A DNA stretch of 64,000 nt from Ochrobactrum sp. CGA5 (GTDB lineage: Bacteria; Pseudomonadota; Alphaproteobacteria; Rhizobiales; Rhizobiaceae), in the NCBI RefSeq assembly GCF_006345815.1, contig NZ_VCIG01000043.1, positions 231,043 through 295,042 of the forward strand. Direction: 5' to 3'. This document shows, one piece after another, positions 39,377 through 60,187 of this stretch. Made by a program: the position numbers and the translations under genes. The stretch's first letter is position 1; every line of letters starts with the position of its first letter. The notes under the pieces were generated by a model. That model was not told the DNA's origin and made no database searches. It was given only the letters and a program-made list of their open reading frames with translations.

Positions 39377-39455
39377 GCGCGTTTATCGTGCCGTAGAGCG
39401 CAACCCGAAAAGTGTGAAACGGTTTTCGGATAAGATGCGCGTTTATCGTGCCGTA
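39377..39455 (+). repeat. RIME-like element flanked by 19-bp direct repeats derived from the argB end
   Basis: GCGCGTTTATCGTGCCGTA occurs at 39377-39395 and again at 39437-39455. Its last 13 bases also match the argB end at 39354-39366. Between the two copies lies a CCCGAAAAGTG...CGGTTTTCGG palindrome. The arrangement resembles an inserted or duplicated palindromic element with a repeated flank. Confidence 0.8.
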
Positions 39456-58753: not shown

Positions 58754-58782
58754 TTGCGTTACTCTTGTGCGGCTGCTAAAAA
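58754..58782 (+). promoter_or_regulatory. Candidate promoter of the attenuator-controlled exporter
   Basis: TTGCGT at 58754-58759 and TAAAAA at 58777-58782 are separated by 17 bases. A transcript starting near 58789 would begin just ahead of the leader ORF. Confidence 0.4.
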
Positions 58783-58810
58783 TGCAACGGTGTCAAACCG
58801 GGATAAAACG

Positions 58811-58840
58811 ATGCGTAACGAAAAATCAGCAGAGAAATAA
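58811..58840 (+). CDS. Nine-residue leader peptide (MRNEKSAEK) of the FloR/CmlA-like exporter
   Basis: The mini-ORF runs ATG to TAA with GGGA seven bases upstream of its ATG, and its stop touches the first arm of the downstream hairpin. The peptide MRNEKSAEK has the same length as the cmlA leader as I remember it (MSTSKNADK) and shares M1, K5, A7 and K9, with E for D at 8. In cmlA, drug-stalled ribosomes on this leader open the messenger for translation of the exporter. Confidence 0.6.
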   Translation: MRNEKSAEK

Positions 58841-58983
58841 GCCGCAACAGCTTTTCCGACCTGTTGCGGCATCTGCCCCGGATAAATCTCCATTAAAGCG
58901 CACCCCGAAAATGTGTAACGGCTTTGGGATAAGGTGCGCCTTATAAATAAGGCAGATCGCCGCCCGATTACTTTCTCGAGCGG
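58841..58983 (+). promoter_or_regulatory. Candidate translational attenuator of the FloR/CmlA-like gene
   Basis: Four segments can pair alternatively. Segment 1 GCCGCAACAG (58841-58850) pairs perfectly with CTGTTGCGGC (58861-58870). The following GCGGCATCTGCC (58866-58877) pairs with GGCAGATCGCCGC (58951-58963). That segment's CCGCCCG (58960-58966) can instead pair with CGAGCGG (58977-58983), which covers the ribosome-site region before ATG 58994. A ribosome stalled on the leader would block segment 1, favour the middle pairing and free the start. This is a paper fold, not a computed one. Confidence 0.5.
58897..58942. repeat. RIME-like palindromic element within the exporter leader
   Basis: GCGCACCCCGAAAATGTG and the partner CTTTGGGATAAGGTGCGC form a palindrome between segments 2 and 3 of the attenuator; as an RNA hairpin it would bring those segments close together. 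Confidence 0.7.
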
Positions 58984-58993
58984 ATGTTCCGTC

Positions 58994-60187
58994 ATGCCTT
59001 TTAATAACAAGCAAACTCCGGACTGGAGCTATTCCCTGCCATTCGCGCTCGCGTTGATGGCCCCCTTCGACATTCTCGCCTCACTGGCCATGGACATCTA
59101 CCTGCCGGTCGTGCCGTCCATGCCCGCCATCCTGCAAACGACGCCCGCGATGGTGCAGTTGACGCTTAGCCTCTACATGGTGATGCTGGGTGTCGGGCAA
59201 CTACTGTTCGGCCCATTATCGGACCGCTTCGGACGCAGGCCCATCCTGCTTGGCGGCGGATTGGTATTCGCTCTTTCGTCCTTTGGCCTGGCGATTACCG
59301 ACAATGCACCACTCTTCGTAGCACTTCGGCTCGTCCAGGCAACGGGAGCTTCGGCGGCGCTTGTCGCCACTTTCGCGACGGTCCGCGATGTCTACGCGGC
59401 GCGTCCCGAAGGTGCGACAATCTACAGCCTTTTCAGCGCTATGCTTTCCTTCGTCCCGGCCCTCGGGCCGATTGCCGGTGCGCTGATTGCAAAGGGTTTC
59501 GGATGGCGGACAATCTTTGCGTTGCTGGGTGTGCTCGGTCTCGTTGCGACATGGCGGGCCTTGCACCATTGGCACGAGACGCGCCCAAACAACAGCCCTC
59601 CACGCGCGGGCAGTATAGTCCGGATCATAAGTGATTTCCGCTTCTGGACCTATACGCTTGGCTTTGCGACGGCGATGGGCACTTTCTTCGTGTTCTTTTC
59701 CACGGCGCCACGCATTCTGATCGAACGCGGCGGCTTCGGCGAAACTACCTTTAGTTTTGCCTTCGCAAGTGTCGCCATCGTCATGATCGCCGCCACGCGC
59801 ATCCTGCCACGTCACACACTGAAATGGGGCGCTCGTACAAGCGTGTCCCTTGGCATGGCCGTGCTCCTCGCCAGTGGGCTCCTGCTTGTGGCGGGTGAGA
59901 AATTGCTGCAGCCATCATTTACAAGCCTCATCGTTCCGATGTGGCTTGCCGCTGTTGGGATCGTCCTCACCGGTTCGATGACAGCAAATGGTGCGCTTGC
60001 TGCCTTTGACGACAGTGCAGGCATGGCGGTCGCGGTCTATTTCTGCATCCAGAGCCTGATCGTCAGTCTCGCGGGAACCGCACTGGTCATCTTCTTGCCC
60101 GGCGATACCGCATGGCCGTTGATCATCTTCTGCACATTCATGCCATTGCTGGTTATGGCCATGCTTGCGAGGCTACAACAGAGCTGA
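58994..60187 (+). CDS. FloR/CmlA-type MFS exporter (chloramphenicol/florfenicol efflux family)
   Basis: The 397-residue transporter has 12 helices and the DHA1 motif A in FGPLSDRFGRRPILLGGG. The segment LMAPFDILASLAMDIYLPVV and later TLSLYMVMLGVGQLLFGPLS are nearly the same as in FloR as I remember it. ATFATVRDVYAARPEG, FVPALGPIAGALIAKG and FFVFFSTAPRILI also match. It is therefore a chromosomal relative of the mobile FloR and CmlA exporters, although drug export here is not shown. The start at 58994 follows a leader with a probable attenuator. Confidence 0.85.
   Translation: MPFNNKQTPDWSYSLPFALALMAPFDILASLAMDIYLPVVPSMPAILQTTPAMVQLTLSLYMVMLGVGQLLFGPLSDRFGRRPILLGGGLVFALSSFGLAITDNAPLFVALRLVQATGASAALVATFATVRDVYAARPEGATIYSLFSAMLSFVPALGPIAGALIAKGFGWRTIFALLGVLGLVATWRALHHWHETRPNNSPPRAGSIVRIISDFRFWTYTLGFATAMGTFFVFFSTAPRILIERGGFGETTFSFAFASVAIVMIAATRILPRHTLKWGARTSVSLGMAVLLASGLLLVAGEKLLQPSFTSLIVPMWLAAVGIVLTGSMTANGALAAFDDSAGMAVAVYFCIQSLIVSLAGTALVIFLPGDTAWPLIIFCTFMPLLVMAMLARLQQS

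What the first reader, a model, noticed from the sequence alone, without database searches (positions are those of the whole stretch)
58754..60187. Chromosomal FloR/CmlA-type exporter with a cmlA-like drug-inducible attenuator
Seen: a promoter-like pair, a nine-codon ORF (MRNEKSAEK) ending exactly at the first arm of a perfect 10-bp hairpin, and two further pairings. 58866-58877 pairs with 58951-58963, and 58960-58966 pairs with 58977-58983. Each excludes another, and the last covers the region before the exporter ATG. Known: cmlA is induced by chloramphenicol through ribosome stalling on a nine-residue leader (MSTSKNADK as I remember it), and FloR/CmlA are exporters of the same MFS branch. 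Inference: this is a native, chromosomal version of the attenuated exporter and could be related to the ancestor of mobile forms.
Basis: partly seen in the sequence, partly recalled or inferred. Interest (0 to 1): 0.8.

Follow-up and report, generated by a model that had tools for sequence, protein, structure and literature searches.

The report
Drug-sensing switch before phenicol pump
A genome of the Brucella/Ochrobactrum group carries a chloramphenicol-type export pump behind an RNA switch, apparently thrown when the drug stalls a ribosome on a nine-residue peptide, and the same switch precedes the mobile resistance genes cmlA and floR as well as related genes in many rhizobial genomes.

Summary
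The leader is real and conserved. A nine-codon ORF (MRNEKSAEK, 58811-58840) ends exactly at a perfect 10-bp hairpin, followed by two competing pairings; the last hides the region before the exporter ATG (58994). The exporter passes the curated CmlA/FloR cut-off. Of 80 related loci, 76 keep a short ORF whose stop abuts the same hairpin; cmlA1, floR and floR2 leaders are homologous. The third-last leader codon is Ala or Ser in 93 of 93 loci (59 distinct; Thr in a few later ones), residues reported to let chloramphenicol stall ribosomes; the published cmlA stall makes that codon penultimate. The arms covary. Folding predicts the switch in 38 of 44 sequences, but only weakly for the window itself. 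An RNA model finds the leader strongly in 44 of 297 family genomes; 44 of 45 places precede an exporter match (one partial), one a truncated exporter. Published papers describe the cmlA and floR attenuators, but for floR call the hairpin distant from the ribosome site and its role unclear; arms 3 and 4 offer the missing link. The window gene is a cousin, not the source, of floR (AU p=0.0004). The loop holds a dispersed palindrome. Induction was not tested.

The parts
58811..58840 (+). Leader ORF, nine codons MRNEKSAEK plus TAA; predicted stall with Glu8 in the P site, Lys9 in the A site and Ala7 penultimate
   Evidence: third-last codon Ala/Ser in 93 of 93 loci; stall position of the cmlA leader from passages of PMC11190716
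58841..58850 (+). Arm 1 (GCCGCAACAG), starts at the base after the leader stop; pairs with arm 2
   Evidence: on A2 the helix has 99.2% of cells paired and 3 pairs with both-side changes
58861..58870 (+). Arm 2 (CTGTTGCGGC); its GCGGC pairs with arm 1 (off state) or arm 3 (on state)
58871..58877 (+). Tail of arm 2 (ATCTGCC), bridging helix with 58951-58957
58898..58939 (.). Diverged copy of a dispersed palindrome in the loop between arms 2 and 3; probably an insertion, not present in relatives L019, L022 and L039
   Evidence: 47 places in the own genome with up to 2 mismatches, this one included, 0 in the reversed-pattern control
58951..58966 (+). Arm 3 (GGCAGAT C GCCGC CCG); pairs with arm 2 or, by CCGCCCG, with arm 4
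58977..58984 (+). Arm 4 (CGAGCGGA), holds the weak Shine-Dalgarno-like stretch before the exporter ATG; paired with arm 3 in the off state
58994..60187 (+). CmlA/FloR-family MFS phenicol exporter, 397 aa
   Evidence: NF033134 607 bits against cut-off 450; Pfam MFS_1

Best explanation
The exporter is controlled by phenicol-responsive translational attenuation through a four-arm RNA switch. Without drug the leader is translated and released, arms 1:2 and 3:4 form, and 3:4 hides the exporter's ribosome-binding region. With a phenicol, a ribosome stalls with codon 8 in the P site and Ala7 penultimate; its footprint covers the start of arm 1, freeing arm 2 to displace arm 4 from arm 3 (2:3), which opens the exporter start. 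Shown here: anatomy, conservation, covariation, predicted refolding in relatives, and the same leader before cmlA1, floR and floR2. Inferred: stalling on this particular leader, the inducing drugs, the exporter's substrate and the start of transcription.
For: Leader stop abutting the hairpin in 76 of 80 loci found by protein alone, in 18 of 18 genus places and 10 of 10 order places, each set including the window (which demanded Ala/Ser/Thr). Third-last codon Ala 78 / Ser 15 of 93 loci, 44/15 of 59 distinct sequences (loci anchored by the hairpin alone). Chloramphenicol stalls with Ala, less strongly Ser/Thr, penultimate and no Gly in the A site (passages of PMC8066774); the cmlA leader stalls with Asp8 in P and Lys9 in A (passages of PMC11190716). 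Covariation on 33 sequences: 26 pairs, 92.9% of cells paired, 9 pairs with both-side changes against 3.9 shuffled (0 of 500), and pairing of 30-52% when partners are slid; inner part of 3:4 has mean run 4.24 against 3.16 shuffled, 0 of 2000. Folding: 2:3 probability over 0.5 in 38 of 44 when the codon-8 footprint is masked, 0 of 44 free; the cost of opening arm 4 to ATG falls by at least 2 kcal/mol in 41 of 44, against 8 of 44 for a stall at codon 4 and 16.8% of 1100 shuffles. RNA-model search: 45 strong places in 44 of 297 family genomes; 44 precede an exporter match: 30 of 30, 10 of 11, and four already read as L097, L103, L122 and the window.
Against: No induction data. The window's own predicted switch is weak: opening cost 8.0 to 6.3 kcal/mol, and 5 of 25 shuffles do as well. 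L024 and L048 go the wrong way in cost, and six of 44 rows (L027, L048, L115, L118, L119, L120) stay under 0.5 for 2:3. A simpler measure, mean unpaired fraction of arm 4, hardly changes over 43 sequences (0.26 free, 0.29 stalled), because freed arm 4 finds other weak partners. The 2:3 core shows little covariation (1 of 6 pairs with a both-side change), as expected if shared by two states but weak proof of it. In one search one slid control (+1) has more cells with both-side changes (22 against 12), though fewer pairs (7 against 9) and 34.1% paired; shuffles do not remove relatedness. The exporter's Shine-Dalgarno is weak, no consensus promoter was found, and L040 and L047 lack the leader stop.
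Confidence: 0.83

Rival explanations
1. The hairpin at the leader stop is only a transcription terminator or processing site of the upstream SDR gene, and the nine-codon ORF is accidental.
For: The hairpin starts 88 bases after the SDR stop; two weak R1 matches elsewhere (L216, L218) look like ordinary terminator-like hairpins without an exporter.
Against: No T run follows the hairpin on the + strand. Relatives without the SDR gene beside them keep ORF, hairpin and arms, and at this place the block is missing together with the exporter in 15 of 15 loci read.
Confidence: 0.04
2. Transcription attenuation: drug-stalled ribosomes prevent an intrinsic terminator upstream of the exporter.
For: Leader ORFs with competing hairpins are also used in transcription attenuators (passages of PMC5418344); floR mRNA rises on induction in published work (passages of PMC5890775 and PMC8256890).
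Against: The 3:4 hairpin ends ten bases before the ATG and has no U tract. The one + strand terminator-like site found (58980-58992) has a 5-bp stem, and it lies at the start codon. An mRNA rise can follow from translation protecting the mRNA (recalled).
Confidence: 0.06
3. The leader is conserved as RNA only: the region is a structural or regulatory RNA and the peptide is not read.
For: All alanine codons at the third-last position are GCA (42 of 42 distinct leaders), and leader GCAGAT pairs with the arm-2 tail in the free fold of L019.
Against: At that codon Ser (TCA, TCG, TCC) and Thr (ACA) replace Ala, and nothing else was seen in the sets; 46 of 51 distinct peptides have nine codons from ATG although several other positions vary; the cmlA leader is known to stall.
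Confidence: 0.04
4. The switch is real but answers mainly to another signal, such as another antibiotic or slow decoding.
For: The natural inducer in soil bacteria is unknown; the last codon is Lys or Arg in 58 of 63 distinct leaders.
Against: No run of one amino acid's codons; the Ala/Ser/Thr rule matches chloramphenicol and the gene belongs to a phenicol-exporter family.
Confidence: 0.08

Closest known systems
cmlA attenuator (cmlA1 L111, cmlA4 L114, cmlA5 L117)
   Same: Nine-codon leader ending at a GCCGC hairpin, competing stem-loops, CmlA/FloR-family exporter; stall at codon 8/9 (passages); alternative stem-loops reviewed in PMC8876359 (passages)
   Different: Protein only about 45% identical; arm 4 differs and holds AAGGAG; GTG start; beside other resistance cassettes on plasmids
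floR and floR2 attenuator (L112, L113)
   Same: Leader MGNSKSADK, same hairpin, arms 3 and 4 recognisable; exporter 61-62% identical
   Different: Mobile. Two papers describe leader and hairpin but say it does not overlap the floR ribosome site (passages of PMC5890775, and PMC8256890). In the fold the floR2-type row L048 keeps 3:4 when stalled (2:3 probability 0.00), unlike the floR-type row L061 (0.90)
CmlA/FloR-like genes in genomes of Mesorhizobium, Microvirga, Rhizobium, Chelativorans and relatives
   Same: Same four arms and leader rule
   Different: Other genomic places: in 33 such loci printed none of queG, SDR, mepA, mgsA or glk was found in the flanks held; most lack an insert in the loop
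ermC and cat translational attenuators
   Same: Drug-stalled ribosome on a short leader frees a hidden ribosome site (passages of PMC5418344)
   Different: Unrelated genes; sequences not compared here

Membership tests
CmlA/FloR phenicol exporters (NCBIfam NF033134) | Score over the curated cut-off | tested here: met
   607 bits against 450
CmlA/FloR phenicol exporters (NCBIfam NF033134) | Is FloR or CmlA proper (exception models) | tested here: not met
   505.8 against 700 for FloR, 368.7 against 875 for CmlA: same family, not those genes
CmlA/FloR phenicol exporters (NCBIfam NF033134) | Exports phenicols | not testable with these tools
   Lead only: Ochrobactrum sp. POC9 with a cmlA/floR gene of equal length is chloramphenicol resistant (passages of PMC6069005); orthology not tested
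cmlA/floR-type translational attenuator | Short leader ORF with the stall motif (Ala/Ser/Thr third from the end) | tested here: met
cmlA/floR-type translational attenuator | Hairpin beginning at the leader stop | tested here: met
cmlA/floR-type translational attenuator | Alternative structure that hides or frees the exporter ribosome site | tested here: met
   over relatives; for the window sequence itself 2:3 goes from 0.00 to 1.00 but the opening cost falls by only 1.7 kcal/mol
cmlA/floR-type translational attenuator | Induction by phenicol and stalling on this leader | not testable with these tools
   No expression or toeprint data
Any Rfam family | Score over gathering threshold | tested here: not met
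   0 matches in the window; best permissive match in the region 26.6 bits against 398 needed (RF02599)

The most novel reading that the evidence does not exclude
The mobile phenicol exporters (floR by this tree, cmlA possibly) were taken, leader and all, from rhizobial genomes where exporter plus four-arm ribosome-stalling switch is an old unit, and the switch has begun to decay in mobile copies: the floR2-type row keeps its ribosome site closed in the stalled fold, the floR-type row lacks a base in arm 4 and pairs 3:4 less, and two Bacteroidota copies lack the leader altogether.
Probability: 0.4. Interest if true: 0.75.

Novelty: new member of a known kind. Interest (0 to 1): 0.58.

Why it matters
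Relatives of this gene, mainly floR and cmlA, are spread on plasmids: 2981 of 72,556 plasmid records hold one at E of 1e-40 or better. Papers on floR report induction and a leader hairpin but state that it lies away from the ribosome site and that its part in induction is unclear (passages). The comparative set gives a concrete, testable four-arm mechanism, ties leader conservation to the known chloramphenicol stalling rule, and points to rhizobial genomes as the place to look for the source of floR. A new RNA family could be built from it; no Rfam family matched at its threshold.

Tried and rejected
Mean unpaired fraction of arm 4 as a measure of switching gave no clear change; helix probabilities and opening cost were then computed, and both results are reported. 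A first script over RNA-model loci crashed part-way and was rewritten. RNAalifold on A1 returned only the first hairpin; the register of the arm-2 tail and the inserted palindrome blur the rest. Arms 3 and 4 were then counted on A2: two Brucellaceae rows (L019, L022) were shifted by one column for the bridging helix, they were not. Terminator, transcription-attenuation, peptide-free and other-signal explanations are listed as rivals. Direct descent of floR from the Brucella-group gene was tested and rejected. The outgroup sat on branches of 8 to 9 changes per column, so that root is not trusted; one search was built without it and has no inferred root.

Rows left out: L014 was kept out of all structure alignments because of its long insert. 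A1 used 39 of 59 distinct sequences; A2 33 (30 of the 59 plus L118, L120, L121, none with the palindrome, so not the window); the fold set 44 (43 scored); the second tree 59 of 92 rows (duplicates, near-copies, fragments and long branches dropped). In one search, 52 genomes matched at E of 0.01 or better; the eight with only weak matches were not read.

Bias to note: one search chose among anchors with a score that favoured Ala/Ser/Thr at the third-last codon, required it, and mixes such loci with places read by hand; the count free of this is on the set. The R1 model contains the leader columns, so its hits lean towards such leaders.

Full report
WHAT IS THERE. The leader ORF runs 58811-58840 and its stop is followed at once by arm 1 (58841-58850), which pairs perfectly with arm 2 (58861-58870). 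58866-58877 pairs with 58951-58963, and 58960-58966 with 58977-58983, which ends ten bases before the exporter ATG at 58994. In 5000 dinucleotide shuffles 12 had any perfect 10-bp hairpin and none had one abutting an ATG ORF stop. The promoter was not confirmed. Neighbours are queG and an SDR-type epimerase upstream and the murein endopeptidase mepA downstream. That the genome is of the Brucella/Ochrobactrum group is inferred from named relatives at 88-90% protein identity.

THE EXPORTER. It scores 607 bits against the 450-bit cut-off of NF033134 (CmlA/FloR family chloramphenicol efflux), and below the cut-offs of FloR and CmlA proper. The nearest solved structures by sequence are distant: Multidrug resistance protein D (2gfp, E=1.2e-14), a quinidine resistance protein and MdfA.

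CONSERVATION OF THE LEADER. A protein-only search of a genome collection kept 80 loci (162 were confirmed, the best 80 kept). A hairpin of the same kind lies upstream in 78; in 76 it directly follows the stop of a short ORF; L040 and L047 have lost the stop codon, and L077 and L085 (Bacteroidota floR copies) lack the region. The L090 leader starts with GTG. Many of the 80 are near-identical floR copies: with 13 further loci the set holds 59 distinct sequences of 93. The genus search gave 17 of 35 genomes with 18 places, all 18 with leader; an order sample gave 10 of 297 genomes with the exporter, all 10 with leader; both include the window. Named plasmid genes show the same leader: MSTSKNADK for cmlA1, cmlA4 and cmlA5, MGNSKSADK for floR and floR2.

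THE STALL CODON. In the 93 loci anchored only by the hairpin the third-last leader codon is Ala in 78 and Ser in 15; in the 59 distinct sequences 44 and 15. Later loci add Thr (L213-L215, L217, L225). The second-last codon is Asp, Thr or Glu in 63 of 63 distinct leaders, with Val or Arg in four later loci; earlier positions vary more. Passages of PMC8066774 say chloramphenicol arrests only with Ala, less Ser or Thr, penultimate and no Gly incoming; passages of PMC11190716 say the cmlA leader stalls with Asp8 in P and Lys9 in A. The conserved codon is therefore exactly the penultimate one at the stall.

THE ARMS. On A2 (33 distinct sequences) the named structure has 92.9% of cells paired and 9 of 26 pairs with both-side changes, against a shuffled mean of 3.9 (0 of 500); sliding partners lowers pairing to 30-52%, although the +1 slide has more both-side cells (22 against 12). 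Helix 1:2 has three pairs with both-side changes, the bridging helix one, helix 3:4 five. Read with its one-base register difference the inner 3:4 run is 4.24 pairs on average against 3.16 shuffled, 0 of 2000; L115 has CTTT:AAAG where others have CAAA:TTTG. The 2:3 core is nearly invariant (191 of 198 cells paired, one of six pairs with a both-side change), as arms serving two partners must be, so covariation says little about 2:3 itself. These shuffles do not remove relatedness.

REFOLDING. With the leader masked as for a ribosome stalled at codon 8 (footprint length recalled), 2:3 exceeds probability 0.5 in 38 of 44 sequences and in 0 of 44 free; the cost of opening arm 4 to ATG falls from a mean 10.3 to 5.6 kcal/mol, by at least 2 in 41 of 44. 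Controls: stall at codon 4, 8 of 44; shuffles, 16.8% of 1100; in 31 of 44 sequences at most one of 25 shuffles reaches the real drop. Against: the window drops only 8.0 to 6.3 and 5 of its 25 shuffles do as well; L024 and L048 rise; L027, L048, L115, L118, L119 and L120 stay under 0.5 for 2:3 (though the cost falls in all of these but L048); the mean unpaired fraction of arm 4 hardly moves.

HOW WIDE. A covariance model from A2 was searched in whole genomes: 45 places at E of 1e-14 or better in 44 of 297 family genomes. Thirty became loci, all with an exporter match on the same strand, though in L140 over 194 residues only; three of them (L131-L133) are floR2-type copies by the tree. Eleven more were fetched, ten with an exporter match and one (L229) with only a truncated start of one; four were already in hand. 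In a sample of 385 class genomes only the own genome was strong; two others matched weakly (E 0.007). In 398 phylum genomes 15 matched at E of 0.001 or better: six of the family (own included), three floR-like copies, three of a diverged group in one family outside the class with an 11-codon leader ending TVR (exporters 55-57% identical), a cmlA-like gene with leader ending TDR (L217), and two terminator-like false matches without an exporter (L216, L218), so weak E-values of this model cannot be trusted.

HISTORY. In carriers of the Brucella/Ochrobactrum group whose flanks were read, the unit sits between the SDR gene and mepA. All 35 genus genomes have the SDR gene; in 15 of the 19 without the unit at this place the next stretch was read, and the mepA match begins 125-255 bases on with neither leader nor exporter between. 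In 33 loci beyond the group printed none of the five neighbour genes was found. The careful tree (59 rows, midpoint root, so nesting depends on the root) puts plasmid floR and floR2 in a supported set of ten rows (99/92) with L130, Nitratireductor L064, the rhizobial UBA3584 L086 and floR-like copies from other taxa, next to Rhizobium genes (16 rows, 99/95); the window is in a Brucellaceae set (7 rows, 100/100). Holding Brucella and floR rows together is rejected (p=0.000388; groups named after seeing the tree); cmlA1 is unresolved. The insert in the window's loop is one of 47 dispersed palindrome copies (22 and 25 by strand, up to two mismatches; control 0).

PRIOR WORK. Passages of PMC8876359 review the cmlA attenuator with two alternate stem-loop pairs. 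Passages of PMC5890775 and PMC8256890 describe the floR leader and hairpin and induction of floR mRNA; both say the hairpin does not overlap the floR ribosome site, and the second that it is unclear whether it takes part in induction (elsewhere the same paper says the hairpin blocks the site). The rows listed by ten library searches (several lists capped, only open-licence papers held) named nothing that by title or abstract describes the Brucella/Ochrobactrum or rhizobial leader or a 3:4 arm; this is not proof of absence. POC9 (passages of PMC6069005) is a chloramphenicol-resistant Ochrobactrum with a cmlA/floR gene whose stated coordinates span 1194 bases, the length of the window gene with its stop.

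VERDICT. A phenicol-type exporter with a real, conserved translational attenuator: a new member of a known kind, whose comparative anatomy offers an explanation of how a hairpin away from the ribosome site can control it. Induction, stalling on this leader and substrate remain to be shown.

Noticed in passing
window 58905-58932 and 39406-39433; 47 places in the own genome: A dispersed palindrome (CCCGAAAAnnGTGnAACGGnTTT) occurs genome-wide; one diverged copy sits in the attenuator loop. The name RPE-like for such rhizobial palindromes is recalled only.
   Followed up: partly
   Followed up: partly
L040:2349-2380 and L047:2365-2396: Leaders whose stop codon reads TAT or TAC while the arms remain; the reading frame runs on into the hairpin.
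   Followed up: no
L229:1482-1700: An attenuator followed by only the start of an exporter, in a genome (G433) with another attenuator and exporter match on a different contig.
   Followed up: partly
L014:2230-2500 and L122:1307-1483: Longer inserts in the same loop between arms 2 and 3, which seems to tolerate insertions.
   Followed up: no
L213, L214, L215 (one genus code, g575, outside the class): A diverged version: 11-codon leader ending TVR with TGA stop, arms kept, exporter 55-57% identical.
   Followed up: partly
window 58811-58840 versus L013 and L024: Within the same genus group the leader peptide switches between a KSADK/KSAEK class and a TELATR class while the hairpin stays almost identical.
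   Followed up: no
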